A DNA stretch of 64,000 bases from Ascidia mentula. Its lineage: Eukaryota; Chordata; Ascidiacea; Phlebobranchia; Ascidiidae. This document shows positions 6,240 to 60,600 of this stretch, piece after piece. A model generated the notes under the pieces. The model was not told where the DNA came from. It saw only the letters and a program-made list of their open reading frames with translations, and made no database searches. The number at the start of each line of letters is the position of its first letter. The first letter of the stretch is position 1. Location: contig OX387201.1 in the NCBI GenBank assembly GCA_947561715.1, positions 13,530,001-13,594,000 of the forward strand. The letters are read 5' to 3'. Position numbers and translations under genes: made by a program.

Positions 6240-6590
6240 TAAATATAAAGGGCCTGTGCAGTGGGGGCTATCCTGCCTTGCTATACAAAAGTATGGTATT
6301 ATTTCTGCGTTGTCTGATTAAGGTGGTGGAGATCCCCTACATATGTGAAGGTCGCCTGACAAGTTGTGCACTTGCACACCAGTGTACCTTGGCCACAATA
6401 TACCCCGTGAAACCACTGAGCTCCTGTAGCTCAGTTGGTAAAGTGTTGCGCTTGGTTAGCTGAGGGTCGTGAGTTCAAACCTGACTGGGAGCTTGATTTT
6501 TCAGATCTCCCTCTGACTTGTCGGGATTAGTGGCTGATCCAGCTTGGCTTCAATGCATTGGCTGCAAATCCTGTAAACCTTAGTTTCAAT
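6240..6590 (+). mobile_element. tRNA-derived composite SINE, copy 1
   Basis: The tRNA-like part has an A box (TAGCTCAGTTGG) and a B box (GAGTTCAAACC), flanked by conserved non-tRNA arms: upstream CTTGGCCACAATATACCCC and downstream GAGCTTGATTTTTC followed by GTGGCTGATCCAGC. The same architecture recurs at seven other places in this window. It resembles the composite SINE described from Ciona (Cics-1); that assignment is from memory and unchecked. Confidence 0.85.
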
Positions 6591-6601
6591 AATGTCATAA
6601 A

Positions 6602-8538
6602 CTAACCACCATGTCCATCAAGTGCCACAGATTCCAGTTCAGCAACCATTTTTCTTAATTCTTCATTTTCAGCCTCAATTTCCATTATCTTTATTTTGTG
6701 GTTGACATTGGTTTGCTCCAAAATTTGTAAAAGCGGAGAAATCACTGTTTCAGTGATGTTACAGATGCTTTGTGTGTGAACGGAGGCGTTGTGTAACTTG
6801 GTTAATATACAGCTGCCGCACGACCTAAAACCGACAAACATAAACTATTTGGCACTAAGTACAATTTGATTCTATGGTAGGAGAGATAATATGGAACTTG
6901 AAAGGAAAGTTGGATTCTGGCCAGTTTTGCATTTGTTTTATGTATGTATATATATAGGTTTGCAAAGTTTAATAACAGCTTATGTAGTTTCTTACCCTAC
7001 AACTGCATTGTATGCTTCACATTCCTCATGAACTAATGTTTTTGGCAAACTTGTCAATGTCTGAAGGTTAGCTTCACTCAAACTTTGACTTCTTTCCAGG
7101 TAGATTGGAACTTCAATACGTTGGTGCCTGCAGTTCATACAACACAAGACACAAATTAAATCTGCGAAACACTTGTTTGTAACAGCAGTGTTGTACACTA
7201 AATGGTAAAATAACAAGTAACATTTTTTACTCACTGAGAACTGTCGCCCATACTTGTCAATGATTGGAAGCAAATCATTTCTACAGTTTGGTGCTAAATC
7301 ACACAAGTTATTTCGTTAAAAACAAAAATTAATATTTTTAAAAATGAAATAATTTACCATGTTTGATTTGTTCTCATTAAAACACGAGAATATCAACCCG
7401 ACAAACGTCTCATCCATCATCTGATACATTGCCTGGGTCTGAACATCTTAATGCAAATGAGCAATTAAATACAAATAATGCATGTAACACAAAGTAAGCT
7501 TACCAACATGTGAAGGCCAAACAGTAATATGTGGGTGGGAGTGATACCAACCAACAATTCGTAAATTCTTTCCACTTTTAATGGCCAACTCGTACACACA
7601 TGGTATTTTGTCAAGGAATATATTTGTAGTTTTCTAAACTGATAGCAGTATTCTCTACAACTAGAGCATTGGTGTTTACTTTTTACACTAGTTTTGTGAA
7701 AGCAGCCATAAGCCAACAAGTGCCAAAATCTACAACTGTGTTCACTACAATAGCTTTCTGGAACTTGGATAGCTAAAACATACATTTATGAACTATAAAT
7801 AAACTAGATAAACCAGAATGAATGTTACAACAGGTCTAGCCAAAAACACATTGGTTGGGATATCTCAGCATAGGATGAAGCATTGGAAAGTTGCTCAACA
7901 GATATTTCAACTCTGTCTTTGCGTTTGTCCATTCTTCGAAGTAGAAGAACAGCAGAAATGTTAATTTCACAGCCAGAGAGCTAAACAAAACAGAATATAG
8001 TTATTGTGTATAAGCTGCAGACAGATGGCCACTGTTTCGACCTAAAAGGTCTCATCAGTGCAGCTGGTGTGACTTTCAGACGACTTTGCTGACTAAACGG
8101 CCAAGCAAAGACTTCCACTTTGTGGTGACTATACAATCACCGTCATCCGTTGGGCATCAAACTAGGTGCAACCTTATGGAGAAAACAAGGTGGAAACACT
8201 ATGGCCAAGCAACACTCAACCAATAGTGCCGTCAGGCCCCGTGTCTAATCATTTGATAAGCAATGTGGAGCCAATTATATGCCAATAAGAAAATAGTTAG
8301 TATGCACAATCCAAACTTTTCATAAATAATATGCTAGTGGTAGTATAAGGTTTTCAAATACTCCCCATAACAATCACGAGTTTAGGATAATAGATGAACA
8401 CATAAACACATGCAATACCTTCTCGATCATTTCTCCAATGCACAATCCCATAACTTCTTCCGTCTCATTTGACAAAGCATGCATTAGACAGGTTAGATAG
8501 GCATCACAGTTTAACCTCACGCACGCCACTGATCCCAT
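6602..8538 (-). CDS. BRCC3: BRCC36, K63-specific JAMM deubiquitinase
   Basis: Seven exons on the minus strand: 8538-8419, 7980-7864, 7591-7504, 7446-7358, 7293-7235, 7127-6996, 6824-6602; about 275 residues. It aligns along its length with BRCC36, the MPN+ metalloprotease that removes K63-linked ubiquitin in the BRCA1-A and BRISC complexes. Seen: the catalytic Glu region EEVMGLCIGE, the conserved RMDKRKDRVEIS, and a full JAMM zinc motif HSHPHITVWPSHVD (HxHx7SxxD). The C-terminus matches the KLHNASVHTQS helix and an acidic coiled coil. The start MGSV was chosen because it gives the usual short lead before the first MPN strand. The link between exons 1 and 2 is shorter than in human, so a small exon may be missed. 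Intron 2 appears to be U12-type (AT-AC). Confidence 0.92.
7592..7863 (-). other. Candidate U12-type AT-AC intron in BRCC3
   Basis: No GT donor fits between exons 2 and 3. On the minus strand exon 2 ends GCTGAG and the next bases are ATATCCCA (U12 AT-AC consensus ATATCCTT). The intron ends in AC at 7592-7593. A TTCCTTGAC at 7618-7610 matches the U12 branch consensus TTCCTTRAC, with its branch A about 19 nt from the junction. Joining at these borders gives a gap-free 20-residue alignment to human BRCC36 across the junction. Confidence 0.8.
8013..8065 (-). ncRNA. Type I hammerhead ribozyme 1, core intact
   Basis: On the minus strand: helix I AGCTGCA pairs with TGCAGCT at the 3' end; core CTGATGA; helix II GACC(U)/(A)GGUC; GAAA; helix III ACAG/CTGT with a 7-nt loop; then GUC, cleavage expected after the C at 8020. 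Every conserved core base is present. It lies in intron 1 of BRCC3, in the sense orientation. Confidence 0.85.
8066..8290 (-). mobile_element. Body of hammerhead-bearing repeat, element 1
   Basis: The sequence on the 5' side of the ribozyme shares blocks with the repeats at 16783-16976 and 31235-31395, notably TTCCACTTTGTGGT and GTTGGG. There is no ORF, so the element is non-autonomous. Its far end is not sharply defined. Confidence 0.5.
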
Positions 8539-9649
8539 TTCAGGAGTCTTTTGTGTACAAATAAAATGAGAATTCTGAATTGTTGCAGCAACAATTACTT
8601 TTGATAACTACCAAAATCAATAATTCCCGAATGATTTGTAGAAAAAAATAATATGAAAACAGAAAAATACTGTTTTTTCACTGTTTCTGAAAGTCTTTGT
8701 ATGTTTTTGACCAAACTCCTAAACCAAAAGTTTTTAATTTCTGCTGAGTAATTGTTTTTCGGAAAAGTGACAAGGCATAAAAGTCGATTTTGTGGCTATT
8801 TTAAACTTTTCAAAAGCTGTTTTTTTGCAAATAGGCATCATATCCATTAGACCACTTATCACGCTATATTTCTCCACACTACAAAAAGATTACAATGATG
8901 TTAATATGAATCCTAATTATTTGCCCTAAACCATATGTTTGTTACGCTTTCGAGCATACTGGAGTTATGGTCTGGTTATTTTCTAAAGGTAGCAGTTGGA
9001 CGTGACGCTTGTGCAAGTAACAAGGTAACACTCACTAACAAACATTTAGGTAACGTGTTTTTCCAAACCGAATGTCCATTTCAAAAGAAACCGTATCCAA
9101 TTACTTGCAACAAAGAGCCAGCAGAAAGCGAAGTAGCTTCAGGCAAAGTGATGTATGCTACGTGCCTTATTTCTGGAGCTTTTCTCATTGATCTGACTGG
9201 GTTGTCGGTTTATTTAGTGAAAGGTAGCGAACTCGCACGGGTAAACATTTTGTGGAGATACATAGCTTATGATATCATACACAGGGGGAAGCTGGGAGTG
9301 TTGATGACGTCATAATCGCGTTAATGTGGTGGCACACAGAGGGTCAGGTAAATCTATTAGTTTGGCCATTGTTAATTCTAGTTAATTCTGACTGTTCATA
9401 CGTGTCAAATACTCAACAAGTTTCTTATAAGTTATAGAACTGCAATTGAAGATTGTCCGACAGTGTTGAACGGCATTCACAGTATTTCTTTAGTTTGTAG
9501 GCAATATGTACCCGATTTCTTTAAAACGATCAAGGGACGTCGCCATTCGTTGTCTACAATGTCAGGACTTAGTTTGTGACCTGTAACGTTTGTGTTCTTC
9601 ACATACATCAGATCGTTTAACACAATAGAGGTTTGTCAGCCCTTCGGGC

Positions 9650-15670: not shown

Positions 15671-16780
15671 TGTAGTTGACTCAAATGCATTTAAAACACT
15701 TGTTACGTGTTTGATAAACGTTATTAACTGTTCTTAGTTCGCTTATATTTGGCAAACTAAGAATGATTCTAAAACTTTATTTCACACAAAACTAGTCTCA
15801 AAAAACTGTTTCACAAACTATTTTCTTACAACGTTATGCAACACCGCCAATGTATTTACAGTGCCTCCAACCAAGTTACTTTGATAAACGCAAAGTTATG
15901 ATGTTCTGAATAATATTATATGGAATCGTAATAAAATTAACAAAGAATGGCGAAACTGTCTCCACGAAACAAAGTGACACAGTTTATCACATACCTGGTG
16001 TGAAGTTGGACTCGCTCTCTCTGCCCTTCGCATTGACCACGCAGATTATAAATAGGCAGCGCGATGACGCATGAAAAAAGAGTTGTGCCACGCGTAATAC
16101 AGCAAAACTCGAACAAAGTCCAACGTGACGTGTTTGTTCTTGCTCTGACCCGGTATAGCCCTTCATAAGGAGGTGCAAAGACGGGCGATGTTTGTCTTTG
16201 TGTATGAAAAGATCAGCGCTTTTGTCCAACGACTTGGAGAACTTTCTTTGGGGTGTGAGTGACGCGACATAGATGTCGGTAAGAGCCTTCAAACAGCCGA
16301 CCTCAAAGCTGACAAGATTCGACGCGGGGACGGTTCGGTGGGTGTTTGTCACGTTTCACTATTTCAAAGATGACTGGTTTCTGGACAGCAGTGTACACGA
16401 GGGGTTTATTCTTACCCGCCAAAAACTTACCCGCCAAAAAGTACACGAGGCACATTTTTACCGGCACAGTATTCAAGCCCGACTCATTAAATCAGCTCCG
16501 ACATTATCATATTAATAAAGAAACTAAGAGATGATTATGATCCTCAAACATTTTTGGTGAAAAAAGTAGCTTGATACGGCGATTGGTTTCTGAGATACAG
16601 CTGATTAAAGTCGCAGTTTAACCGCTGCGAACGAAATCGTGCAAAAGCGAAATTATTGTTGCGTGACGTCATAGAAGGAGCTTTAGTCGTGCGAGCGCTG
16701 GCAACCAGCCTTATGCGTTGGAATGAAAAACATTGCAAAACTGGTTTAGTATATGTGGAAAAGAGCCATAATAATCAAGT
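15671..16780. other. Upstream flank of methyltransferase copy A
   Basis: The stretch to about 16110 is alignable with 22666-23090 upstream of copy B. Both contain a TATA-like box (TATAAATAGGCAGC near 16045, TATAAAAAGGCAGC near 23015), which reads best on the plus strand. It may be a divergent promoter. No coding exon is recognised. Confidence 0.35.
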
Positions 16781-16782
16781 AA

Positions 16783-16916
16783 GGTCTCATCAGTGCAGCT
16801 GTTGATGTGGCACTGTGCTAGCTGGTAGACTAGCAGGCACACAGATTTCCACTTTGTGGTACCTTTCGGTCAATCGTCGATATGTTGGGTACCAGCTAGC
16901 ACAGTGCCACATCAAC
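16783..16916 (+). mobile_element. Hammerhead-bearing inverted repeat, element 2 body
   Basis: The left end is a truncated inverted ribozyme half (AAGGTCTCATCAGTGCAGCT); the right end leads into an intact ribozyme. The arms GATGTGGCACTGTGCTAGCT and their complement are nearly perfect. The body block CAGATTTCCACTTTGTGGT is shared with elements 1 and 3. Confidence 0.7.
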
Positions 16917-16976
16917 AGCTGCACTGATGAGACCTTACAGGTCGAAACAGTGCGTGTATACACCCTGTCTGCAGCT
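16917..16976 (+). ncRNA. Type I hammerhead ribozyme 2, core intact
   Basis: Helix I AGCTGCA/TGCAGCT, core CTGATGA, helix II GACCUUACAGGUC, GAAA, helix III ACAG/CTGT with a longer palindromic loop (GTGTATACAC), GUC with cleavage expected after C16969. It lies between genes. Confidence 0.85.
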
Positions 16977-17899
16977 CTCATGGTTTAGTATAGTTTTGCA
17001 TAAAACAGAGGGCACAACAAGTGAACAAGTGCAACAAACGGATTTTGATGTTAATTTAAGCTGCTTCGACCTATTATGTCTTATTTAGTTGTGTAATAAT
17101 AAAACAGTTACTGGGACAGGGTGTTCTTGTTGTTAAAGCATTTATGATCGCTTACGTGATACATGAACTTTTGTAAACACGACAGAGACAAACTGTCAAT
17201 TTAGGCATTGTCGTTTTGTCCACTCACAGCAAAAGAAAAAGTAATTAAATTTTAAGGCTGGCAAAGACCGCCGAGAAAAGTCGACCAAATTACCTGATTA
17301 TGTAACACGGTTATTCTGCCATAGTACAACGTTTTGTCTGGCAGTAGCGTTGCCTATGAGTTCGCGTCATAAATGATTTGATTAATTCGCCATAATTTCA
17401 CCAATGTATTTTTCGCAAAAAAGTTAAATGTTGGAATTAACAAATTAAAGTCAACACATGGGTGAGTTATGACATCACACCAAAAATGACGTCATGTAAT
17501 GCCACTGAGCAAGGAAACGCACCATCCCCGTCTTATCGAAGTACAGAGTAGTGTCGTTGCTGGTATACCATTTGGTCTTCCGATAATCATGGACAAATAA
17601 AATAAGCCTTTGGTTTGTGACGTCACAGTGACATATGTTTGTGTGATGTCAAACCTTGTCCCGACTTTTGAGGTAACGTAATCTGTGGATTCTCCTATGT
17701 TTGAAACTATTCGATATCGAAAATGTAAGGCGTCCTTCCCTATGTAAACAATGCATTTTTTCGACGCGAGCGCCTTGTGTGATGTCATTTTCGCCACAGC
17801 GCAAAAGGTTTACGATTTTTGGTCGCCGCTACTTCTCGTGCAGTTTTCTACATTTTGTAGTTGACGTAGAAGAAAAAAACTTTGGATATATGTTTGTTG
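16977..17899. other. Spacer, no gene recognised
   Basis: Several short ORFs show no recognisable domain. The sequence lies between the ribozyme repeat and the gypsy fossil and may include eroded parts of the latter. Confidence 0.3.
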
Positions 17900-28828: not shown

Positions 28829-31800
28829 ATGAACTTTGTAATTCCTGAAAATAAGGATGATTTGGTGAAACGTACTTCTGGTCAATACTACGTTGAAGAC
28901 TATATTCCAACAAGGCTAATTCCAATCAAGCTTCAAGGTTTGCTTAAAAACAATTTACAAGTATATATTTCTTTCATACATATAACTTATAAATGTATAT
29001 CCTATCTCAGAGGCTAAAACGACGCTCATCAAATTGAATGGAACAACTATTGATCAGTATTTCGATGTTTTCTTCACAATCATTTCCAAGTTTACTGAAA
29101 TCGATGTCACCACCAAAGTGCTTGCTTGGAACATTTTAAAAAAAGGTTTAATTTGAACATTTAATTTATCTTTGAGAAAGGAGGTTGTTTCTAAAGTTTT
29201 TGGTTGTACATTTTTTGGTACAAGATGCTTAAAAACAAAGTTACGACAATTTTGACAAAATATTTGCACAGCATGTGAATCATTCAGCGGCGTCTTGGTC
29301 AAATTTCTTGCTGACCTTTTGACCGACGACTCTGGACATGCCAGCTCTGAAAGCAAGAAGTTCCAGCTTCGGTGTTTAAAAATGGATATTTATCTTCTTG
29401 TGGAAATGATGCGCTCCTTTCAAATGCACTCCACACAAAATACTACCTTACTTTCATCGCCACCAAAAGGCAGGAAACAGACCAAGGCTAAGCCTTCTGC
29501 CAATTTGGGTAAGTTTAAATCAACAGGTGAAACATTTATATGCGATTCAATATATATATACAACTTGTTTTATTACTTATGAGTTATTTTTTGTACTTCC
29601 TAATGTAAAAATACTAACATTTACTAACTACTACGTGTAAATCTTTTAAACCTACAATCTACATTTTCAGGGTTGGACTGGGAAAAAGAATGTCAACATG
29701 GTTTACAAATCCTCATGAATTTTGTTGACTTGGACATTCACCGACTGTGGGATTCACAAATTGTGGAAGATGAACTTACTAGGTGTGTTATATTGTCAGG
29801 TTTGCCAAAATTTCTAGGATTTGTGTTTGTTTTCATGTGCAGTATGTAGTAGCTAAAAGGGTATGGTTGAGAATTTTGAAGTAAGACATTTTAATGTTTA
29901 CTTTGTTGTCAGCCTGATTAGCAATCTTTGCTACAAGTTGATGGAAGATCCTGCAATATTGAAGGCCAAGTCACTTAAAGCTGTTTTATTTCACCTTACT
30001 GGATGCATTACCAAAAAGTGAGAATGATTCAATAAACGCAAGTGTTTACCTACACATGTACAAACAATGTGTGGTCAATGAACCAGACACCATTGTATTG
30101 GTTTTTACATCATTAACTATTTAAATTCCATCTAACTTATCATCACTAGATCACAAAATTAATTTTTTTTTTATTTTAACCAGCATTATAATCTCATAAT
30201 TTTGTTATTTTTTCCCCATCTTGTAAGTTATCGCCTCTTTTCTGTAATTATAACTGTTCTTTTTTTAGACACAACCAGTCAATGAGTGCTGCAGTGAAGC
30301 TAATTCAAATGCTTCAGCATTTTGAGCATGTGGCATTGCCTCTTTCTGAAGCCGTTCATCTGTGGGTTGATAGTTACAAATGCAAAACGCTGGTGTCTGA
30401 AATTATCAGGTAATGAAAAGTTTGGCATGTTATTGGGCCTATATCACACTCAGTTAATTAAAAAGAAATCTTCTGTTTAATTTATGTAGAGAGTTAAGCA
30501 ATATACCAGAGCGAGACTTAACTCGTGATAGTGGAAGTACAAAAACCATCTGCTCTTTCACTCTTGAAATGTCGAAGTTGCTCCCAAGCGAGGTTTTAAA
30601 TAACATCAGCCTTCTGCTACCAAGAATGGATGAAGATGTGAGCAACATTCTTTATATATCTTGGATTTGCAATCTTTTTTTGTGCAGAATGTTTAAAAAT
30701 GCTTTGAAAAACATTGTTGTTAATTAGGTATTACCACTAACCTAACGACCTTTGTGTCAAACACTTATAAAAACAGGAATTATCCTTATTTAATGTATTG
30801 CAGGAGTGCTGTGATAAGGTTTTGTTGTGGGTTAATTATCAAACTATTTCAATTGTAACAGTTTTTTAAACAACTACTTTTACTAATTTCAGCATGTGTT
30901 CTTCTGTAAATTCTTTTTATCTTGTTAACATCAGGCTTCCACAATTTTTTACATGTGGCATGTTTCTATATTGTGATTTAATATTAGCATAGTGTGTAGT
31001 TAAGACTGGAAAAGGCCTGTTTTTTAAGTCCTGACTGTTTGTTAAAAATGTCTTTGTTAACTAACTGTTACCGGTAACTGTGGATTTGACTAAAATGACG
31101 AAACACCTTTTTTTTCAGTCATACATGATGAGAAATACAGTTTTGGGTGCAATTGGAGAAATCATAGTTCAGTGTTTGAATGGTGAAGGACTGGACAACA
31201 AAGCCAAAGCAGCAAGGTAAGGAAAAAGCAAAAACTGGTGTCTGTGGCACTGGGCTAGCTTTAAAAGTCGCAAGCACACATATTTCCACTTTCCAATCGG
31301 TTGGGAACCAAACATCAGAGACAAACCAACATGGAGCATACCAACTGCACTGATGAGACCCTATAGTTTAAAACAGTTTTTAAAATTGGCTGCAGCTTTC
31401 GATGAATATTATTGCCCTTTTTGCAATTTACAAAAAAATAGTAGTAACTGTTGTATGCAGGTTTGTAGCAGTGATATTGAATTCCTTTCCCCACTTTATT
31501 TCTTTCTTTTAAACAGAGACCAGTTCCTTGATATTTTGTATGACCATGCTAACCTTGACACAAATGCCTTTGTGAGATCAAGATCAGTTCACATTTATTG
31601 TACTCTGGTGAAAGAACAGTGCCTACCTATTAAAAGGTACCTATTCAGCTTATCCGTTACCTTTTTAGTGGATATTAGCTCTGTATGTACAAAATAAATC
31701 ACACATTGTATGTGATCTGTTGATTGGTAACCACTTATTCATAAAATTTAGATATACTGATGTGGTTGAACTTGGTGTACAGCTATTGCTAGATCGTGGA

Positions 31801-34800
31801 AACCTTGTTCGCAAGGCATCAGTTCAGCTACTAGAAGCATTGCTGCGGTGCAATCCTTTTGCTGCTACTGTAAGTTGTTATGTATTATTGCTGATTAGGT
31901 TATTGTGAAAATTAACCTGCTTTAGTGTGCTTACTTGCTTTTGATGTCTGGGCAGTTACCTCCACATGTCGTGTATTACTACTGTTTCATTACATGTGTA
32001 TATGGAACACGGCAGTATACTTTGTTGTGGTTTTTGTTTAGCTTCCAATGACAATTCTTCGGGAACAGTATGAAGAGGCAAAATTTCGTCTGGCAGCACT
32101 TCAAGCTGAAGGTTTGTGAAATACATAAAAACCTAATTTTATTCTGATATATGCTGCAATTTTTTTCTTTATATTCATGATATTTCAAAAATATGAACAG
32201 TAAGTGATATCTTACTGGGAGTCCTGGGACTATGGTGGACATATAATTTTGCTGTGAAGTTTAAAATATATTTTTAGTTACAAACTGATTCAGTTTAGTC
32301 TGTGACTAATATCACTGTAGTTTTAGCGGATACTTCATGAAAAATACTTTTGTTTGCATGAGAAAGTGGTGTTTAAAACTTACAGTGTATTGTATTTTTA
32401 GAAGCTGCAGAAAAAGAAGCAACTGTAAATAAATCAACAGATGAAAATAAGGGGGTCGAAAATTCACTAGATGGTGATCAAGAGGTAGTTAATTCAAATG
32501 AAATTACTGAAATGCAAACAGAAAATAAAGAAATGGACAAACAGAAGGTAAGAAATAGGGTTTAACATTTGCATTTGAATAAACTACAACAAACATCTTC
32601 AGTTGATGAAAACGTTTAGTCAAGTTGCCGAATGTTAAAATGATGTCCCCTGTTGGGGCAGATTCTGATTGTTATTCCAATTATATCTTCATGATAATTG
32701 ATTGTAATAAAATAAATAAATAACGTGAAAACTTAATTACTGACTTTATTTGTTAACCACATTGTTCCATTGTTAAACAGACATCCTTGTTTGTTATTTC
32801 AAAAAACATGTGGTCAAAAATTACTGTTGACGCTGGACAATTTGAGAAGTTGATTAAATGTTGTTGTTGCTTGTATTGAATCTAGAGTGTGGTGACATAC
32901 TATGAAGAGTCGATTCGTTTTGTTGAAAAACTCCAGGAAGCAGTTCCTGTTTTGTGTCAACTCCTGCATTCCCGTTCAAACACTGATGTTTTGGAAGCCA
33001 TCAGTTTCTTTACTGCAGCTTGGGAATTCAAGATGAACTTTGCCCTACAGGGTAGGATACCACATTCCTCTGTGCTGTTCTACTTTTTGTTAATTGTTTA
33101 TATATAATATTTTTTAAACCAATACCAAGATCGTGCATAGTCACACCAAGCTACAGCTGCACTGGTGAGACCTTATAGGTCGGTGCAGTTTCTATCTGTA
33201 TGCAGCCCACAAAATAGATTTTTAGATCAAACCCTAATTTCGTTTAAAACATCCTTAAAAGTTTCAACTGACAGAAACTTGCTTTAGGCATTGGAGAAAT
33301 GTTAAACCAGATATGGAATGAAGACATAAAGATTAAGGAAGCTGTTGTATTTGCTTACAAGGAACTTTACCTCAAACAAAAAAGTTCATCCAGGTGATTT
33401 TGAAATTAATCTTGTTGAGTTAGTGTGATGTTGCTCCCATTTAAAAACATGAATGAAGTCACATGTGAAATATGTTTTTCCAGCACATCTCACTCTGCCC
33501 AAGTGACGGACAACATGATAATGTTGGTGTCAAGTTCAACAGGGGCCCGACGAAATGCGGTCCAAGCTTTAATCGGTGAATTACAAAAGTCGGGTGATCT
33601 TCCATCTGGGGTTATTTCAGTAAGTTTTAACAAAATAAAAAATGAGAACACAATAATGATTTATTGAACTTTCAACATTAATCTCTCCCACTGTGCTCCT
33701 ACATTCTTTCTCTGTTAACTTTTCTCCCTTTTTCCTCCATTAGACTATTTTGTCTACGAGTGTCAGTATTCTTATGCATGGAAATTGAGTGATAAAACAA
33801 CTAAAATGTTTACAAATAATGAATCATGTGGACTTTGCAGTCCGTGCCTGAAATTGATCGCTGCAGAGTATAATGCTTTATTTGTTCAACATGAAATCTC
33901 AGTGTTTCATGAGCGAATAGTTTTAATCTTTCTTGTGTGAACAATAAATATAACAATGGTTAATCAGAACGTAGGTAAGTTTACTGAATCCCAAATCTAT
34001 TTGTGGTTGTGATTTATTTGGAAACCTGCATGTCCTCGTGAAATGCCAACCGCCTCCAAAACTTAAGTTTTTTTTTTTGAAGCCCGAATTTGCTCCTACG
34101 TTCACCTCATAAGCACGTTTGTGTCTGGGAATCATTTCACTGCATATGCACACAATTGAATAGAAATATAATTTTTATTGATAGCTTGGTTAATCTTGAT
34201 GCTGTTTCATGTAGATCTTATGGGAGCGCCTGGCAAATCCCCCTTCCTCATTCACAATGCAGAAAGGTGTGAGTGAACTCCAACAACAAAAAGTGATAAC
34301 ACAGCTTTTGGCAATGCTTGCCCAGTAAGTTACTTATAAAAAGTGCCCATTAAGAAACAAATCCAATCCATATTGACTTTTTTTAGTGATGACCCCAGCA
34401 TTATTCGCTCAAAGCTTGACATATTGTGTGATGTTGGTTTTGTGGAAGCGACCTCTGTGGAGGAATCAAGAGAGATTTTTGACTATGAGCTTCCTTATAA
34501 CACTTGTGTTGCTCTATCTAAGCTGGGAAGTCGTAAACTGGAAGCAGGGAAATACGTGAAATCCTTCAGGCTTCCTGACGAGCACCCTTCAATGGCAAGA
34601 ATTTCTAAGTTGCTCACAAGAGGTGAGTGCAGGCAAACTTCACATCACAGTAATTTAAATGTTTGATTATTTTTTCTTAGTTTGTTTCGCACATACAAAC
34701 TGCAACACCAAATGCTTTGCAATTATATGTAGAGAAATATTTACATGATATACTTTGCAACATTTCATTTGGGGGGATTTCTTTCATAATTATTATTAGG

Positions 34801-37800: not shown

Positions 37801-40717
37801 GGAGGTGGAACACTGGCGAGACTTGGCTCATTGTCTCTCCCTACTTAACTACACAGAGAAGGCTTCCAAGCGTTTGATAGAGAATTTCTCGTTTTACGCT
37901 GAAACACTTCGCGACGAGACCGTGTATTTTTCCTTCAACGCCATCTTGACCAAGTGCAAGAAAACAGCTAAAGAGGACCTGAAGGTATATGTTTTTTCCT
38001 AGCGCATTTTGTATTTCCATGTCCTATCGGTAACGACTAACGGATCAATTTTTCCTGAAGACTTGCTAATGTACTGCTTCCTGCTGGACATTCTTTAGTC
38101 CTTTGGCGCTTGAATATTCTCATAATCAACTAACTTTAATATGTCCTTATTTTCATTCTAACAAATTAGTGAAATACAATCATAAAACAAATGTCATTTG
38201 AGCTGCAGACACTATAGTGCACACAATGTTTCGACCTGCAAGGCCTCGTCAGTGCAGCTGGTGACCCGTTTTACTGCACCAGCTGATAAGCTAGCCAGGT
38301 CTTGGGCTGTTTTGCCATGCTTCGAAATAATGTCGTTATGTTTGTAACGGATTGTTTTTTCCTAAAGACTCAAATCGAGGAACTGGAGGGAAAGATTATC
38401 GACTCCCATGCACAGGGAGTTAGCGAGGACGAATCTGCTGCCAAGGCTGCTCAGGCATCCAAGCAATACCAGATCGTTCCTCAATCCCCGTCCGTCAGTC
38501 AAACTCCAAGTAAGTGTTTTTTTCTCATCGTCACTTCCTTTGTTGATGAGAGGTCACAACATCACCTTTTTTTTAAAAAAAGGCAGGGTTAAAAAAAAAT
38601 TAAGTGGGTCTGTCCGTACCATGTAACTCGTCGCATTCGTAACGTTGGAAGAAAAAACACCTAAAAACAATGTGTTTTACACGGCGTGCACAGAAAGTTG
38701 ACCTAGTTTCGTGTATTACAAGGTTATGTAGTCATTTTGCAGTTGGTGTATCTCTGTTGTATTTGCTATCAGCTACGTAGTAAAGTATGATAAAAAGGCT
38801 AGATTGGAAAGTGTTAGTTATGTGATGTTATAGTAACAAAGTGAGACTTTCTTATCAATTGATTATCACACATTCACGTTCTAACCACTGTCAAATATTC
38901 TTTATGTTAATAACACAAGCACAATAAGTACAAGTTATGAAGAAGAAAGTAAAAACTTTGATTCAGAAATGACAGGAGTTTATTCGTTAGTGGATGTAGT
39001 TTGTGTGATTTACACATAGTGGCGGGGAAGTTTGAACACATCATACCCATGAATTAAAACCATGATTTACATGTTTATTAATAATCGCGAACAGCTGCCT
39101 TCATCAGGCGCATGAGGCGACGATTGCTTTTCATGAAATCGGTGAGAGCTTTGTGTTTCCGCTTCACTAAATATGTTGAGTGAGTTATTTCTCTTTTTTT
39201 CAGGTTCGTCACGGAAGCGCAAGTTCTCACTCGTCCGTGACGTTTCGGTGTCGTGCGCAAAACTGAACCTGGACGAAATTTCCATCATGTCTGTTGAGGT
39301 AGAAGCGTGTTTATGAGCAAATATATCTTTCAAAGATGTTTGTGGGGTTTCGGCATGTAACAAGTTGTTAGACAAGGGAAGGCGATATCTAGGGGCCACA
39401 TTCGACCCGTCCAGCGAAATCGTCAGGCCAAAGCCCCTTCACTAATTGTAGATCTGTAGTGACTCGCCGAATGATTTTATACTACAAGATAAGAAGACAC
39501 CCAAAAAATGAATTCCCGTAATTCGCAAGGTTTACCAACTTTATAGAGACTGAAGTGCATGATATTGGTGGTGGAAACCCCGCAGATACATCGTAGCGTT
39601 TGGCTGTGGCCCGCGGGTAGATAAAGGTTGCCAACCTTGGATCCATTATAACAAACCGAAAGTGACATCTAAAGTCATTAATAAAATATATTCTTTTTGC
39701 AGAGTCCGGATTCGTTCGATAATCTGTTCCCTCGTTTCAGAAGCATGTCGGAATGACGAAAATTGTTTATACGGGTTTGTGACTTAACTGTTAATTTCTA
39801 AAAATTAAAAAATCTTAATTTCTTTTTTTTTGATACAGGGCAAATGCGACCACAACCAAACAGTGTTTTTGTAGTTATTGTGATTTATTGTCGATATTTT
39901 TATGTTTTATTCCCGTCTTTCTTAAATCGTGCCTTTCATTCATGCACCATTCTTCAGTCTTGCTGTGTTGTTGTTGTTTTTATCCTGACACAAGAAATAA
40001 AATTTTCTAAAATGACCAATGACGTCATTTTTGCCGTCAGTCGTGATATTTGCGGCCAGCAGACGACGAAGATCGCAGTTGTTTGTTTCAAATCGAAATC
40101 TACCGAACTTTCATGTGATATTTGCCAGCAGGCGACAGACGAACGGCCAAGAAAAAGAAAACGCGAAACCGGCGCGTCGTTGACGTCAGTGATGATGACG
40201 TAGAAGTTAAAAAGTCGCCACGAGCGACTCGACGAACAACCCGACGTCGTCCTGTTCTTCAATTTTCAAGTGATGATGACGAGGTTGATGATATTGGCGA
40301 AGCGGAAAAAGGTTTGTTGCTAAAGCATTTCTCATTACGGACATTTAGACTGCGTTGTTGTTCATGTTTTAAAAGCAACTAATCGAATCTGATCGGGCAG
40401 AACAGGATAGCTGAATTATACAACATCTTAAATGTGTGGACCATTAAATCGGTTATTTTCTTTGTGGATAATAAATTGAATGTAATGTTTTGTACGGTTT
40501 GTCGTGCTGGTAAGATTTTTACCGGTGCCTTGCATAAGAATTTGTCATATTTAAAAACAACAGTTACTCCCAACTGCTAGAATCCAAAACAAACAAACCT
40601 TACTTTATAGAAAATGTTGGCGATCCACAATTTGCGTCGGAAGAAATGGAGTCGACTCCGATAAGACGTGTGAAAACTCCCAAGCGTTCACAACAGAGAT
40701 CTGTGTTGCGTGTCTAA
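28829..40717 (+). CDS. NCAPD2: Condensin I subunit D2 (CAP-D2)
   Basis: About 29 exons in phase. First: 28829-28937, 29011-29145, 29272-29508, 29671-29782, 29913-30017, 30269-30409, 30490-30637, 31119-31216, 31517-31636, 31752-31869, 32042-32111, 32402-32547, 32886-33051, 33288-33393, 33484-33619, 34215-34324, 34387-34622, 34950-35102, 35193-35307, 35652-35727, 35797-35896, 36510-36640, 36852-37012, 37088-37265, 37414-37592, 37801-37984, 38368-38509; then 40129-40311 and 40611-40717. Aligns along its length with human NCAPD2, the HEAT-repeat regulatory subunit of condensin I. Hallmarks: VRANLIIAAGDLCVRFPNL, DMIKVKGYVSEMARCIVDLN, GNAVYNVMPDIISRLSD and RQTESLVEKLCHRFKATR. The basic-acidic tail (VLQFSSDDDEVDD) matches the human C-terminus. 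AATAAA at 40915-40920. Two extra exons at 39204-39756 give an alternative end. Confidence 0.93.
31235..31395 (+). mobile_element. Hammerhead-bearing repeat, element 3, decayed
   Basis: Body blocks (GTGGCACTGGGCTAGCT, TTCCACTTT) match element 2. The ribozyme part at about 31343-31395 keeps helix I and CTGATGA, but the GGUCGAAAC and CUGUC positions are changed. Sense orientation in NCAPD2 intron 8. Confidence 0.7.
33148..33206 (+). ncRNA. Hammerhead ribozyme 4, decayed
   Basis: Helix I CAGCTGCA and TGCAGC and helix II GACC/GGUC remain. The core reads CTGGTGA (A6 changed) and GAAAC is replaced by GGTGC. Sense orientation in NCAPD2 intron 13. Confidence 0.65.
35402..35556. repeat. Near-perfect 155-bp palindrome (foldback) in NCAPD2 intron 19
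   Basis: The arms from CTAAATAAAAAAGCC to GGCTTTTTTATTTAG are complementary for about 65 bp without a visible mismatch, with a short imperfect centre (CATCATTAG). The outward strands contain TGATGA and GAGTTCGAAACG, a hammerhead-like skeleton. Confidence 0.85.
35891..36384 (+). repeat. 82-bp minisatellite, about six copies, spanning the donor of NCAPD2 exon 21
   Basis: Units begin at 35891, 35974, 36056, 36138, 36220 and 36302, spaced 82-83 bp. Each unit starts with TTGTTTGTAAGT (the real exon-intron border in copy 1) except the last, TTGTTTTAAGT. TTAATTTTCAG, acceptor-like, survives in the first and last copies and is TTTTCAT in the middle ones. The copies are almost identical, so the expansion is recent. 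Confidence 0.9.
37668..37715 (+). ncRNA. Hammerhead ribozyme 5, decayed
   Basis: Helix II GACCTAATAGGTC, GAAA, ACAG and CTGTC are intact. The first core base is changed (GTGATGA) and the helix I partners are lost. Sense orientation in NCAPD2 intron 25. Confidence 0.65.
38201..38259 (-). ncRNA. Type I hammerhead ribozyme 6, core intact, antisense in NCAPD2
   Basis: Minus strand: helix I AGCTGCA/TGCAGCT, core CTGACGA (the variable N7 is C, allowed), helix II GGCC/GGUC with one G-U pair, GAAA, a shorter helix III (ACA/TGT) and GUC. It lies in NCAPD2 intron 26 on the strand opposite the gene. Confidence 0.75.
39204..39756 (+). CDS. NCAPD2: Alternative 3' exons of NCAPD2 (short C-terminus)
   Basis: Exon 38368-38509 ends in phase 1. 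It joins in frame either to 39204-39298 plus 39703-39756, ending SMSE-stop, or directly to 40129-40311, which gives the family's usual basic-acidic tail. The first path has good splice sites (TTTTTTTCAG, TTTTTGCAG) but no homology to known condensin tails. Isoform choice is inference. Confidence 0.5.
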
Positions 40718-42429: not shown

Positions 42430-45400
42430 ATGGTACAAGAGGTAACGAGACATTTATCGCATTTCATTAATTATTTTTAGTTTCTTTTTTTTTCTTAAAA
42501 TTTAATATCTACATATTATATTACTTTTACAAAAAAGCAGGAATTAAACAAAGTGTAATGTCGTTTGAAACTTGTGATAATCTACAGATACGTAGCTTGT
42601 AAAATAAAAACAATTCGAAAAGATTTTGCAGGCAGTCGGTTTAGTGGCTGGAGAAAGTACTTTGAATTAATCCCAGACATTTTACACGGTTGCTCTACTT
42701 TCATTGCTAACCGACCATGCGTAACCCCTGCCCTGTTACGTCATAGGGCGATTCGACTGTAGGGGAAAGAGATGAAAATCAGGATCGAGGCAACTGGGAC
42801 AACAAAGCAGATTACCTTCTATCGTGTATTGGATATGCTGTCGGTTTGGGCAACGTTTGGCGCTTTCCGTACCTGGCCTTTAAGCATGGCGGAGGTATAA
42901 CCTTTTAGCGCTATCTTGGCCCCATTATTTCAAAGTAATATTAAGCATGCACCGTCGTTGTTGTCCTAAATAAGGTGATCTAATTTCACATAATTTTTTT
43001 CTCATTTCGCAGTTATACCTTCTGTGTATTTGTGCAAATTAAAAATAAAAGCAAAAAGTATCGTAAAAAAGTATTCCCTGCACGTTTTACTGAATACATC
43101 CTTCTGATTTTTTAGGTGCCTTTCTCATTCCCTACGTGATCATGTTGGCTTTTGCCGGCTTGCCGGTCTTTTTCCTAGAATGCGCCCTTGGTCAATTTTC
43201 CAGCTTGGGTCCCATCTCTGCTTTCAAGTTCAGTCCCATACTTAAAGGTTTGTTGTAAGAAAAAATGATTTTCGTTAAATTTTGGACAAAGAAAACTTGA
43301 CGCGATGTACGAAGTAATGTAGATGACACAGCACTGATCACCGGTATTAACGGCAGCATATTGTTTCAGGAATCGGAATTTTCATGGTGATTTTGAATAT
43401 CATCGTATCCATCTATTACAACATCATCATTGCCTACACGGTCTTTTACTTTTTCTCATCACTTACCTCGCAACTGCCGTGGGATTCTTGTTCAAATTGG
43501 TGGAATGACCAGGAATCATGCAGTACCACGTTTAGTGAGACAATAACATTAATAATATCGTGTTTTGTCAAATTAAACATAGTTCGTTACTAATGCTGCC
43601 AGGTATATTTAAAAACGAACTTCCGGCAATAATTTCTCGACGTTTTGATTGTTGTACAACAATAACCTTTATCAGGATGTGCATTTAGAATGCGCACAAA
43701 ACAGGGTGGTAAAATGCCAATATGCGCAGAAACGTATATGCGATGAAGGTTGATGCTGTTGTCAGAAGAGCCCTTTGATTTACAAAAAAAATAATATTTG
43801 ATTGTGCAATAATAATAAGCTGTTAATAAAGACCTAGTGATACTATATGTGACCGAACCCTAAAGTTTGATTTCTGTGCAGAGCAAGTTTGTGATGTCTC
43901 GGTTTCCACATTCCCGAACCACTCAGTTGTGATTACGTGGATTCAAAACAACAATTTAGGGCTTCCAAATCAAACATCCTTCAATTCAGGTATAAACTCT
44001 TTTGTCTTGGTTATATTTTACAGTGAGCGCTTAATTCGCGTTTTTAAGTTAAAAACTTGTATCAGTGTTTTACCTTCTCGTTTCTTTGCGGTAATTGCGC
44101 AGTGATATAGCTGGATTTTATTATGGGTCATAGTTATCTACAACATTTTGCAGTTTTTCGCACGACTGTGCTCAATCTGACTAGCACCCTCAATATAAAC
44201 TTGACCGATGTTGGTTGTGTCAACTTCACAACGGCTCGTGCAACCAGCGCCAGCGAGGAATATTGGGAGTAAGTAAATATTTATAAGTTTCAAAATAAAT
44301 TCTTCTCATATGATAAGCAATGCGGAGCCAATAATATGAATTGTGTATAAGTTGCAGACAGATGGCCGCTGTTTCGACCTAAAAGGTCTCACCAGCTGCA
44401 CTGATGAGACCTTTTAGGTCGAAACAGTGGCCATCTGTCTGCAGCTTATACATAAATACTTTTCCTTTCTGCTGTGGAATGTTTTTGTCAGCGGTTGCTC
44501 ACTGCGAAAAAACGCAAGTTGTGCAATTACATTTATATAACAAACATTCGCATTTTTTGTTCGATTACTTTAATCTCTATGTGACGTCAATTTAAGAAAT
44601 CTACCTCAATACATTTAGTTGGTAAAAATATTTGTGTTTGCAGAAAATATGCTCTTCAACGTTCAGCTGATATTGATCACACCGGTTCAGTCGTCATGCC
44701 TCTTGTCTTGTCTTTGCTTCTTGCATGGATCGTTGTTTATTTTAGCATGATCCGTGGAATTAAGTCTTCCGGAAAGGTAATGCTTGAGTTATTGTCAAGG
44801 GTTTAACTAAATTTTGATTGATTGTAACATGGTGCAACTAATAACAATGTATAATGCCAGTTTATGTAATTAAAGAATAAAAAAACTGTCGATCACCCAC
44901 CTTATCAATATGATTATGTGTTAAATTCCACAATGCGATTTGTGGGCGGCTCAGATGGTGGGTTTTTATTGAGAAAAATATATTTCGCCTGAATAATTCT
45001 ATTTGAATAAGTTGGAGAAACTGATGATGCCTTTTTTATGCGAAATATATTTTTCTCAATAAACATCCACCATTGTCCACAGATCGCCTCCTGGAATTTA
45101 ACATATAATCATAATGCTTGTTTATATTATAATTTCAGTTATCTACTGCACACCACTAATAACACACCGGGGTTTGAACTCAGGATACCCTGGGCACGAA
45201 TCCCGGTCAGGTTTTCTTCTTGGTATATGGGTCGGGCGCTTGACCAATGCTGCCAATCACCGGCCCCCTTTTTCGTGTTTAGAAAAAGATTTATTATTTT
45301 TCATGTAAATGCCTCCCACTTGTGGCAAACATATTTTGGTGATATGTTCGGTATAGGTTGTTTATTTCACTGCCATTTTTCCGTACGTCGTTTTGCTGAT

Positions 45401-57601: not shown

Positions 57602-60600
57602 TTATCGGTGAGCCTCTGTAGCATTCACTGCAAAGAAAAAGGTTTATCTCAAAAAAAGGGTAACAACAACAGAATAATTAACAAATTTTTCGTGTTTGTC
57701 CAACGTAGTTAAAAGAAACAGCTGTAAAATTTTCTTAAAAAATATGACCCACCTGGTTGAAGAAGACAGAAAGTCCCATCAGGTCTGGGTTGTGCAATAT
57801 ACTGAGTAACGTATCGAGTTCCTGGACTCGGCTTTACTGTCGGGTTGGAGTGTAGAGAATGAGCGATTTGACCAATTTGAGGTACTGCAAATATTAAACA
57901 CAAAATTTTCGTAAATTTATCTGTTGGGGATAATCATTTTAATAGTCCCAGGTTTACTATGCAACAACATGCAGGTAATCCAGACCACCTCTAAATTACA
58001 CCATCGAACTTTTAGACAGTCCTCGGGACGACTAAGTCCGTCAATTAGGATCAAATGATCGTTCATTGAACCGCATTGGCGTTTTGATTTTTGCTTTGGC
58101 CAGCACGGCCGTATGGCCACTTGATGTCATATGCAACCTGTCGCAACCCATCACCTTCCAGTGAGACTTTCCGCGTTTCTACGACAGACGGTGATTTTCC
58201 GCGATGAAATCACCTTCACATGGGCGCCTGGCTCGATAATCCTTGTGGTTTTTCCATGCTATTTTATGTTTCACGTTTATTGGTTAGGTGCGTAGAAAAC
58301 ACATTAGGTGGCAATACCTTGAATGTAGTCTGGATTTCTGCCGTTCGTTGCGTTGAAAAATGCTGAACTCAATTCTATGAAGTAGTCTGCAGAAATTTAA
58401 TGTAAAATGATTTTCCGAAACCTTTACATCCTGAGTGTTCATTTAGAGACACTTACCACTTATTGAAAAATCTTTCGATTCTTCGTAGGGTTGCACTGTC
58501 GAAAATAAGTGTATCAAAGTGTTGCTTTATGCCTGGATAACCCTAATCTATAAGATTATTACCCGGCAACAATATAAGTTTGTTCATATATTTTAGACAG
58601 TTTATCTCACCCGGTGTATAGACATCATTTGGCTGCGCTTGTTCCAAAGTAGCAACATCTACAAACAAAATATCGTAATAAGTATGTGATAAGCATTCCT
58701 TAAAACTTCCTGCTCAAAATCGTGTACGTTATTTGTATTCTGTCATTTTTGGCTGATTATGCTTTGACCGAAAGTTGTGTTTGTTTTGCGGCGAAATAGA
58801 AATAGAAGCTGCTGCTGGCTCAGTATTAATGAGCATCAGTAAGGTCTTCAACCAGTTAGACCATTATTCATATGAAATAATTTGGTTTGTGTCGTAGTTC
58901 CTGGGGTGGTCAGTTAGAGGTTAACCTCGTGTATTGATGCTAATAGAAACCGTTGCAGCTTCGGTGCGTATAGTTAGCGCAAAGTTATTTGGAAATACAA
59001 TATGTGTATATTCTGTCTGAGTATTTCGTAGGGTGAATTTATGTTTTACTTCTTACACGTTGTATAATGTCGCTGATTTGCAAGAAACTGTTTAAGGACG
59101 ATGCAAGCGTTTACATTTCACAAGTTGAGTTATCAATTCTGTACCTGGTTCTTCAGTTGGTTCCTGTTTGCTGCTAACCCCGATCTTTTTAGCTGAAATA
59201 AAACATAACACTATCTTTAACACTAGTTTTTCTTCTACAATCCTTTAAGTTTAATAAGTAAATTTATTCGATGTAGGCTACCAACCGATTACAGTGCTTT
59301 TCTCATCATATGTGATGTCGTGGCTGTTCTCCGGACTTTCAAACATTGATTTACCAATTTCCTCTGCATGTAAAATATATAGGCTAGTATTGTTCGTTTT
59401 TATAACTCAATTTCTCACATTTATGTAATTTTGTATTTGATTTTATTATGTAAAAATAACTAAAAACCTACATTAAAAGGTCCTTTTTTGGACTAACGAA
59501 ATCGACACAAAAAATCCATTTCCAAGTGTTAAATACAAAACAAAAGAACTACGAACCTTGCTTTTGTGGTTGATCAGGACTGCCAATCTCCTCTGAAACA
59601 ATAGAAACAAGATGTGTGTCTCAAAGTCATTCAATTTATCTTGAATTATTACAAATTTGTAACAATCGAAACCGCCTACCTGCAATTATGGTGTTTTCTT
59701 TTTGGTATGTAATGTTGTGAGAGTTTACTGGAGAAAATTCTCTTGTGTTTCCTGCAAAACAAACTTTAAGGCTGCAATAACCTAGTATTGATGTATGTAC
59801 TTACCTTCAGTCTCTGCGGCGTTTGTTTGGTTTCCTGAACAAAAATGTGTTATATTTTTACCAACAAAAAATGGTGTTAAAAATTGAGGGTCTTTATAAT
59901 TCTGAACGAAGCTACTTCATTACCTTGAAGGTTGAAGGCGTTCAAGCTGAATAGTTTCCCTGCACAAAAGAAACACTTTAAACTATGTCACGCTCGTGGT
60001 AAGGTTTAAATGCACTTGGTATTCACCTGCTCGGATTTTGATTCTTTCCGTGAACTTTACATCAGTAGAATTTTCTGGACCTAAAACAATTAGTGGTAAT
60101 GGACGATATTTAATTCACACAATACGTCATTTCTTTACATACCTTGTGGCGCTTCTTTTTTCTCACCAATTTTTTTCAAATTGTCTTGAATATAAAACGT
60201 AACTTTAGCAACAAAACAAATGACGCGATATTGTGTAGAGCAAAAAGTGGTTTCTCATGAGTTTAAAGTTTTCACTACTACCAAAAGTTCATAAATATTT
60301 CTATTTTTAGGAATTTTCTGGGAATTACCTTTCCATTTGTTGAAAACCTTTTTCATTTGTTTTTTGCTTAACTTCTTGGTGTTTTCTTCGCATAACAAGA
60401 AATGTAAGTTGTTTGTTAAAACCATTTTAAGAGACGTTACCTTCTTCATCCTTTTCCAGTCCAATTTCATCTTTTAACAAAACATGATCATATGTCTGCA
60501 GCTTTGCAATATTATGGCTTTTTTTGCACATATATGATCATATAATTACGAAAAATATAAAAACTAAAATTACGTTGTTTAACCTGCTTTAATCTCTAAT

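What the first reader, a model, noticed from the sequence alone, without database searches (positions are those of the whole stretch)
8013..8065. Intact type I hammerhead ribozyme in a BRCC3 intron (sense)
All hammerhead parts are present on the minus strand: 7-bp helix I AGCTGCA/TGCAGCT, CTGATGA, helix II, GAAA, helix III ACAG/CTGT and GUC. The chance of all pairings and core bases co-occurring is very small, and an identical motif recurs at 44394. Sense orientation means the BRCC3 pre-mRNA could cleave itself within intron 1. Hammerheads are known in Penelope-like elements, retrozymes and satellites; here the carrier is a short repeat without an ORF.
Basis: partly seen in the sequence, partly recalled or inferred. 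Interest (0 to 1): 0.88.

Follow-up and report, generated by a model that had tools for sequence, protein, structure and literature searches.

The report
Self-cutting RNA jumping element in sea-squirt gene
The motif is a real, intact self-cutting RNA sequence, but it belongs to a small jumping element found in many copies in this sea-squirt genome, and the way the examined copies are inserted suggests that a larger Penelope-type jumping element moves them.

Summary
The motif is real: 8013-8065 (-) holds a complete type I hammerhead, and 44394-44446 (+) is identical. Its carrier is a known kind of element, a metazoan non-LTR retrozyme, here with a 285-nt unit. The window copy is one near-full unit (8004-8287) between 12-bp target-site duplications (one mismatch). 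The genome holds 333 exact copies of a 55-nt ribozyme-plus-tail string and 1543 matches to a looser core pattern. Rfam type I gives 20.8 bits, below its 34-bit cut-off.

What is new is insertion anatomy. In 54 complete inserts, cDNA starts cluster at two sites about 29 nt apart. Of 32 inverted two-arm inserts, 30 have one end at each site. 20 of 86 arms exceed one unit, and 82 of 85 site-primed arms read through the scissile bond. This matches the published "tail" signature of Penelope-like elements; 6 of 9 such loci examined in this genome show it too. So these retrozymes were most likely inserted by Penelope-type machinery from uncleaved or circular RNA. Catalysis, circular RNA and any effect on BRCC3 are untested.

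The parts
8013..8065 (-). type I hammerhead ribozyme, predicted scissile bond between 8020 and 8019
   Evidence: Rfam RF00163 20.8 bits, below gathering
8004..8287 (-). retrozyme insertion, one near-full unit (284 bp), single arm, cDNA start at site A (u16), aligned other end u20 after about one circuit
   Evidence: 94% identity over 278 bp to the 285-nt unit of L026
7992..8003 (.). target-site duplication, left copy AGAATATAGTTA
   Evidence: 12 bp, 1 mismatch to the right copy; score 9.5; 300 random placements gave median 3.9, 95th percentile 7.2, maximum 18.25
8288..8299 (.). target-site duplication, right copy AGAAAATAGTTA
8404..8532 (-). BRCC3 exon (N-terminal part), upstream of the insertion; exon ends not mapped
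   Evidence: phmmer of 8377-8607 to BRCC36 chains, best E 3.6e-9, residues 26-68 matched over the hits
7861..7965 (-). next BRCC3 exon, downstream of the insertion; acceptor AG probably at 7981-7982 (inferred by eye, no transcript data)
   Evidence: phmmer of 7828-7980 to BRCC36, best E 8.8e-8
44394..44446 (+). identical hammerhead in the + arm of a two-arm insertion
44308..44451 (.). two-arm (inverted) retrozyme insertion: left end at site B, right end at site A
   Evidence: duplications 44295-44307 and 44452-44464, 13 bp with 2 mismatches, score 8.0
16754..16980 (.). two-arm insertion of a related retrozyme family
   Evidence: exact 12-bp duplications 16742-16753 and 16981-16992, TGGTTTAGTATA
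16917..16976 (+). complete hammerhead of the related family (loop II differs, longer helix III region)
38201..38259 (-). complete but diverged hammerhead (CTGACGA core), no convincing target-site duplication
33137..33206 (+). decayed hammerhead copy
   Evidence: 77% identity to the unit
31342..31421 (+). decayed related-family hammerhead copy, with an inverted part at 31243-31292
   Evidence: 73% and 82% identity
37674..37704 (+). decayed hammerhead fragment; weak Rfam type I hit at 37668-37710 (19.6 bits)
60493..60534 (+). fragment matching the end of a related-family query (ribozyme end and tail)
   Evidence: 98% over 42 bp

Best explanation
This is a near-full-unit copy of a non-autonomous, non-LTR metazoan retrozyme in the ascidian Ascidia mentula, inserted into an intron of BRCC3. 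Transcripts carry a type I hammerhead. In the published model for such elements the ribozyme cuts out monomers that a host ligase closes into circles (inferred here). A Penelope-like element (PLE) protein then cuts both target strands, usually 12-14 bp apart, and starts reverse transcription at two internal sites on the retrozyme RNA: site A, about 17 nt past the ribozyme's scissile bond, and site B, about 29 nt further on. One primed end gives a simple, often truncated copy. Two primed ends give head-to-head inverted arms, one from A and one from B. Because the RNA is circular or multimeric, the enzyme can pass several units, so a tandem array can arise in one insertion. Shown from sequence: motif, unit, duplications, the two start sites, arms longer than one unit, reading through the scissile bond, and similar end offsets in PLEs of this genome. 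Inferred: PLE protein as the mover, circularity of the template, and catalysis.
For: 285-bp head-to-tail arrays and single units. Set: 62 loci, 6 loci dropped as second views or later duplications of an insertion already counted, 4 inserts dropped as cut by a locus end, 54 inserts left. Two-arm: 30 of 32 are A/B. One-arm: 17 start at A and 5 at B, of 22. Median positions u17 and u46. 20 of 86 arms exceed 285 nt, the longest 1680. 82 of 85 site-primed arms cross the scissile bond; 2 of 86 inner ends lie within 5 nt of it, 3.0 expected. Duplications: of 47 inserts (L004 left out as a copy of L002), 28 have 12-14 bp, 11 have 7-11, 4 have 16-18, 4 none found (count); one search adds 12-14 bp in 6 distinct inserts of 12 loci. 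Opposite-strand neighbours under 1.2 kb among the first 100 places listed: 12 of 12 tails-out (one search list) and 10 of 10 (one search list, overlapping). Units within an insert differ by 73/12518 (0.58%), between the same inserts by 1917/115777 (1.66%). In loci chosen outside the ribozyme: 6/1823 mismatches in the ribozyme, 23/1203 in u179-232; 12 of 12 loci (11 distinct insertions) keep an exact ribozyme. PLEs: 121 GIY-YIG matches from 150 scored of 382 candidates; neighbours under 6 kb on opposite strands are 17 of 17 in the same tails-out order; an 885-aa ORF has RVT_1 and GIY-YIG; of 9 PLE loci examined 7 gave exact 12-14 bp duplications, and 6 of these 7 have ends offset by 27-44 nt, counted by eye. 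PMC11167929 (parts 1-2 of 4 read) reports two adjacent internal starts and cutting and extension of both strands for a PLE; PMC3846280 (passages) reports head-to-head pLTRs with a 31-bp tail.
Against: No RNA, protein or cleavage data. Rfam scores are below gathering. The minimum-energy fold mispairs the core and helix III has low probability. Helix I is an unbroken 7-bp stem, so no loop I-loop II contact is evident. Two two-arm inserts break the A/B rule: L028 (A/A) and L116 (B and u269). Some inserts are not homogeneous between units: L018 2.9%, L063 2.5%, L074 1.1%. No PLE with the retrozyme's own tail was found in the 39 PLE loci searched, which mostly hold only about 1.5 kb either side of the GIY-YIG match. 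PLE L083 has ends that do not match its family's usual inner site; in that family the inner site varies by several nt. In the published PLE system ribozyme mutants still inserted and unprocessed RNA was called the dominant substrate, which speaks against a need for circles.
Confidence: 0.8

Rival explanations
1. Same element and same PLE mover, but the template is an uncleaved tandem transcript rather than a circle; the ribozyme matters for something else, or only occasionally.
For: Crossing of the scissile bond and arms longer than one unit fit a linear multimer equally well. In the PLE of Anolis, unprocessed RNA is called the dominant substrate and ribozyme mutants insert normally.
Against: In 5 of 11 inserts with enough overlap, units are identical (L020 0/730, L076 0/279, L078 0/269, L028 0/229, L062 0/117), as expected if one monomer is read repeatedly; the ribozyme is less changed than its neighbourhood in loci chosen outside it. 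Neither excludes the rival, because genomic arrays can themselves be homogeneous.
Confidence: 0.4
2. The hammerhead in the BRCC3 intron has a host function: sense-strand self-cleavage tunes BRCC3 splicing or expression.
For: Sense orientation, about 37 nt upstream of the inferred 3' splice site; the ribozyme is unchanged although the insert is 94% identical to the unit.
Against: It is one of many insertions of a mobile family found on both strands; conservation in another species was not tested; folding predicts weak activity. The insert was noticed because its ribozyme is intact, so its intactness is a biased observation.
Confidence: 0.05
3. A LINE-type non-LTR enzyme with ordinary twin priming moves the retrozyme.
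For: Target-site duplications and inverted arms are also seen with LINE twin priming (recalled).
Against: Starts cluster at two fixed internal sites about 29 nt apart, and 30 of 32 two-arm inserts use one of each; the PLE paper calls this signature unique to PLEs, and PLEs of this genome show it.
Confidence: 0.08
4. Ordinary satellite DNA amplified by unequal exchange, with the ribozyme as a passenger.
For: 285-bp head-to-tail arrays exist.
Against: Dispersed single units and multi-unit arrays alike mostly sit between duplications with the same two end positions.
Confidence: 0.02
5. Chance or non-catalytic look-alike.
For: Sub-threshold Rfam scores; 1 of 30 shuffles produced two motif-like matches.
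Against: 333 exact and 1543 looser genomic matches with zero control matches, and related families with the same core (loci chosen by that core).
Confidence: 0.02

Closest known systems
Metazoan non-LTR retrozymes with type I hammerheads (PMC7229834; parts 2-4 of 6 read)
   Same: Small repeat unit (285 nt, within 150-450 bp), one type I hammerhead, tandem copies, longer target-site duplications than plant retrozymes, PLEs with minimal hammerheads in the same genome.
   Different: The paper's main text does not mention ascidian, tunicate or Ciona. Two start sites and inverted arms are not described in the parts read; PLE is there a 'strong candidate' mover.
Penelope-like elements, e.g. Poseidon of Anolis (PMC11167929; parts 1-2 of 4 read) and Adineta Penelope (PMC3846280; passages)
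   Same: Two adjacent internal reverse-transcription starts giving an optional tail, both target strands used, head-to-head inverted arms, tandem arrays, hammerhead near the start site.
   Different: The retrozyme unit is too short for the RT/GIY-YIG ORF; its offset is about 29 nt, against 30-40 in the paper; its hammerhead has a 4-bp helix III instead of the minimal form; duplications mostly 12-14 bp against 8-10 in the Adineta passages.
Newt satellite and axolotl retrozymes (PMC7229834)
   Same: Type I hammerhead with a short helix III, many genomic copies.
   Different: Unit 330-350 bp there; loop 1-loop 2 interactions are reported, fully conserved in one of the two axolotl forms.
Hammerhead type I loci of the tunicate Didemnum vexillum (PMC8704543; one passage)
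   Same: Type I hammerheads in a tunicate genome.
   Different: 9 loci are listed in that passage, without carrier or mechanism.

Membership tests
Type I hammerhead ribozyme | Core CUGANGA / GAA / UH with helices I, II, III | tested here: met
   Helices 7, 5, 4 bp with full core
Type I hammerhead ribozyme | Open end at helix I | tested here: met
   Loops close helices II and III; flanks continue from helix I
Type I hammerhead ribozyme | Rfam RF00163 gathering score | tested here: not met
   20.8 of 34 bits; the site is absent from the whole-window table at E up to 10. A curation threshold, not a mechanistic feature
Type I hammerhead ribozyme | Loop I-loop II tertiary contact of fast natural forms | tested here: inconclusive
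   Helix I is unbroken over 7 bp; no internal loop seen by eye
Type I hammerhead ribozyme | Self-cleavage | not testable with these tools
   Needs transcription and a Mg2+ assay
Metazoan non-LTR retrozyme | 150-450 bp unit with a type I hammerhead, also in tandem | tested here: met
   285-bp unit and arrays
Metazoan non-LTR retrozyme | Target-site duplications longer than 4 bp | tested here: met
   28 of 47 inserts 12-14 bp, 15 others 7-18 bp, 4 none found; window copy 12 bp with 1 mismatch
Metazoan non-LTR retrozyme | No LTR, primer-binding site or polypurine tract | not tested
   No dedicated search was made
Metazoan non-LTR retrozyme | Expressed as circular RNA | not testable with these tools
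   No RNA data held
Metazoan non-LTR retrozyme | Co-existing PLEs with minimal hammerheads | tested here: met
   885-aa RT/GIY-YIG ORF; minimal hammerheads read by eye in L061, L042, L086 and L032. Automatic scans with stricter criteria found none in L031-L060
Penelope-like element | Two adjacent internal start sites / tail, head-to-head arms | tested here: met
   30 of 32 two-arm inserts A/B, offset about 29 nt; no tails-in pair among the first 100 places of two overlapping lists
Penelope-like element | ORF with RT and GIY-YIG | tested here: not met
   A 285-nt unit cannot hold it; so the element behaves like a PLE substrate but is not itself a PLE

The most novel reading that the evidence does not exclude
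Animal retrozymes are PLE-mobilised circular RNAs: a PLE protein starts cDNA at two fixed sites on a ribozyme-made RNA circle from both ends of one staggered cut and runs round it, so inverted arms and whole tandem hammerhead 'satellite' arrays are made in a single insertion. The insert ends are a genomic record that could be read in any animal genome.
Probability: 0.5. Interest if true: 0.75.

Novelty: new member of a known kind. Interest (0 to 1): 0.58.

Why it matters
Which enzyme spreads animal retrozymes is given in the papers I read only as a likely candidate. The two-start-site signature is sequence evidence for PLE machinery and predicts start positions (near u17 and u46) that an in vitro reaction can test. 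It also offers a single-event origin for tandem hammerhead arrays. For the host, a ribozyme of this family can sit in sense orientation in a gene, as in BRCC3, where splicing would have to outrun any cleavage.

Tried and rejected
Rfam gathering scan as a test of the motif: it fails for the window copy and for 12 related loci, yet core, helices and copy number are clear, so I did not take it as refutation. Looking for canonical hammerheads next to GIY-YIG ORFs automatically: none in 30 loci; minimal PLE hammerheads were then seen by eye in four loci. Looking for a PLE with the retrozyme's own tail: none convincing; hits in L050 and L060 look like retrozyme fragments in or beside PLE remnants, and L032 carries a degenerate retrozyme-like hammerhead downstream of its ORF. 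Ribozyme conservation from the first 50 loci (28/4668 in the ribozyme, 33/2683 in the tail, 186/9172 elsewhere) is not used as proof, because those loci were chosen with the ribozyme in the query; one search uses loci chosen by u60-160, but those are young copies, L119 and L120 are copies of one insertion, and most mismatches in u179-232 are at a few shared positions (u215-230), so counts are not independent. Arm lengths as a test of circle against multimer: no clear pile-up. Covariation: in the alignment three rows (L094, L101, L108) had wrong coordinates, and it was not used further. TSD tests for 38201 and 35421 were not convincing. Two scripts failed: time limit; stopped at L084, which gave no inverted arms; L085-L089 were done, where L087 gave no duplication.

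Full report
What was checked. The finding names a hammerhead ribozyme at 8013-8065 on the minus strand. Reading the sequence confirms it base for base: AGCTGCA CTGATGA GACCT-TTT-AGGTC GAA ACAG-TGGCCAT-CTGT C|TGCAGCT. The identical 53 nt stand at 44394-44446 (+). A strict scan finds four complete motifs in 64 kb (8013-, 38201-, 16917+, 44394+); of 30 shuffled windows 29 gave none and one gave two. Rfam is lukewarm: no listing for 8013 in whole-window scans, 20.8 bits against a gathering score of 34 when only 161 bases are searched.

Where it is. The window is G000:C69:13530001-13594000 of a 195.8-Mb assembly. The contig lengths C1 27.92, C2 19.88, C52 23.17, C67 22.72, C69 22.34, C70 21.17, C71 19.87, C72 19.66 and C73 15.45 Mb match the nine chromosomes of Ascidia mentula kaAscMent1.1 (PMC11109543, passages), whose table gives 22.35 for chromosome 5 and whose abstract gives 197.0 Mb in all, 1.2 Mb more than held here. 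The identification is by lengths only. BRCC3: minus-strand translations of 8377-8607 and 7828-7980 match BRCC36 chains (best E 3.6e-9 and 8.8e-8), 6992-7315 matches weakly (best E 0.028), and a frame at 7451-7633 reads GWYHSHPHITVWPSHV, which I recognise by eye as BRCC36-like. The ribozyme lies between the first two of these exons, in sense orientation. I infer the acceptor AG at 7981-7982, about 37 nt past the cut site; there is no transcript evidence.

What carries it. A genome search with 131 bases around the ribozyme reported 52 matches (40 of 1776 first-look candidates scored, so a lower bound), among them arrays with a 285-bp period. Pattern counts: 333 copies (184 + 149) of a 55-nt ribozyme-plus-tail string and 1543 (765 + 778) of a looser core pattern, with zero for the reversed control in both. 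I number the 285-nt unit of L026 from the base after the cut (u1). The window copy is a single, nearly full circuit of the unit (8004-8287, 94% identity) between 12-bp duplications with one mismatch. The copy at 44308-44451 and a related-family copy at 16754-16980 are inverted two-arm inserts with duplications of 13 bp (2 mismatches) and 12 bp (exact).

How inserts are built. I mapped inserts in 50 loci chosen with the ribozyme in the query or pattern and 12 loci chosen by u60-160, outside it. One search puts them together: 62 loci; 6 loci dropped (L025, L026 and L029 overlap L024 and L028; L003 and L004 share the duplication of L002, and L120 that of L119, at other places); 4 inserts dropped because the locus end cuts them; 54 left. 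Of these 32 are two-arm and 22 one-arm; in none do both tails point inward. Outer ends fall at site A (median u17) or site B (median u46). Two-arm inserts use one of each in 30 of 32; the exceptions are L028 (A/A, beside a palindromic duplication) and L116 (B and u269). One-arm inserts start at A in 17 and at B in 5. In the first sample the A/B pairing was 26 of 27, reached by 1 of 20,000 label shuffles (L002 and L004 both counted there). Of 86 arms, 20 are longer than 285 nt, the longest 1680. Of 85 arms starting at A or B, 82 pass the scissile bond, while 2 of 86 inner ends fall within 5 nt of it (3.0 expected if uniform). So the RNA was continuous across the cut site: never cut, or cut and re-joined. 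Duplications of the 47 inserts without L004: 28 of 12-14 bp, 11 of 7-11, 4 of 16-18, 4 not found; the shortest may be chance. In 20 loci of related families (chosen by their ribozyme core), 12 show an exact 10-14 bp repeat placing the end at about u8-11 or u29-35, L105 at both; two of the 12 (L096, L097) share one repeat, and 8 show none that I accept (sorted by eye). Among the first 100 places listed in each, opposite-strand neighbours closer than 1.2 kb are tails-out in 12 of 12 and 10 of 10; the lists overlap.

Who moves it. GIY-YIG matches number 121 (150 of 382 candidates scored), 19 of them in open frames of 700 codons or more (my count). One ORF (L061, 885 aa) has RVT_1 (E 3.2e-10) and GIY-YIG (E 2.4e-6); units of it lie in tandem and head to head, with a minimal hammerhead in the spacer. 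Of the 121 places, neighbours closer than 6 kb on opposite strands are tails-out in 17 of 17. Of nine PLE loci examined for ends (L041, L082-L089), seven gave exact 12-14 bp duplications. By eye, in six of these seven one end is longer than the other by 27-44 nt (L041 38, L082 40, L085 39, L086 44, L088 27, L089 33), though L082, L088 and L089 are one family whose inner end varies by several nt. L083 has unequal ends too, but at another inner place; L084 gave no inverted arms, L087 no duplication. Frangieh and others (PMC11167929, parts 1-2 of 4 read) showed in vitro that a PLE protein starts at two adjacent internal RNA sites, cuts and extends both strands, and that this corresponds to the 30-40 bp genomic tail they call unique to PLEs. 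An earlier paper (PMC3846280, passages) describes a 31-bp tail and inverted pLTRs. The retrozyme inserts carry this signature. Cervera and de la Pena (PMC7229834, parts 2-4 of 6 read) named PLEs a strong candidate for moving animal retrozymes, and a review (PMC7761336, passages) says likely candidates. Neither these passages nor the listings of six searches showed me the tail signature in retrozymes; I did not read the other papers listed, and the library lacks preprints and most subscription journals.

Circle or multimer. Units of one insert differ by 0.58% (73/12518), units of different inserts in the same set by 1.66% (1917/115777), leaving out u160-178. Of 11 inserts with at least 100 compared positions, 5 have no difference at all (L020, L028, L062, L076, L078) and 3 have 1% or more (L018, L063, L074). 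This fits repeated reading of one circle but also a transcript of a young array. In loci chosen outside the ribozyme, mismatches are 6/1823 in the ribozyme, 11/1194 in the tail and 23/1203 in u179-232, suggesting the ribozyme is kept, with the caveats given under Tried and rejected. The published PLE inserts ribozyme-dead RNA in vitro, so the ribozyme's necessity is open. I give the circular template about even odds or slightly better.

Does it cut, and does BRCC3 care? Unknown. The hammerhead fold is 1.4 kcal/mol above a competing fold, and helix III has a pair probability of 0.02 in the linear unit model, although such programs ignore tertiary contacts and Mg2+. The helix III loop contains the palindrome UGGCCA, so two copies might help each other, as dimers do for amphibian hammerheads; a lone copy like this one may be slow. 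A host role in BRCC3 rests on position alone.

Verdict.

Noticed in passing
35421-35537: Near-perfect hairpin (about 50-bp arms) sharing stretches such as GTTCGAAACGTTTAC and AGCTTTGGCTTT with the region after the minimal hammerhead of the PLE in L032 (by eye); perhaps a tiny head-to-head PLE insertion, no convincing duplication found. Sub-threshold Rfam microRNA hits fall there.
   Followed up: partly
11190-11263, 11505-11578, 6420-6493: Two tRNA-Thr genes by ARAGORN (anticodons AGT and GGT) and a weaker Rfam tRNA match.
   Followed up: no
35889-36379: Tandem array of an 82-bp unit, 6 copies, 96% matches, next to the hairpin above.
   Followed up: no
18187-18835 (-): ORF pieces resembling a Gypsy-type reverse transcriptase by eye (FLRMPFGMVNAG).
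   Followed up: no
G000:C67:6134028-6146916 (L043-L047, L061): Five PLE GIY-YIG matches in order - - + + + with a 2870-bp period within each strand: a large tails-out tandem and inverted PLE array, partly read.
   Followed up: partly
u164-184 of the unit (GGTGAACTGTTTAGTCACC): Of 21 one-arm inserts, 8 have their truncated end at u168-183, at a small potential hairpin that may stop the reverse transcriptase.
   Followed up: partly
L002, L003, L004 (C69:14.91-14.97 Mb); L119, L120 (C52:4.60-4.61 Mb): The same insertion with the same duplication at three and at two places, pointing to segmental duplication after insertion.
   Followed up: no
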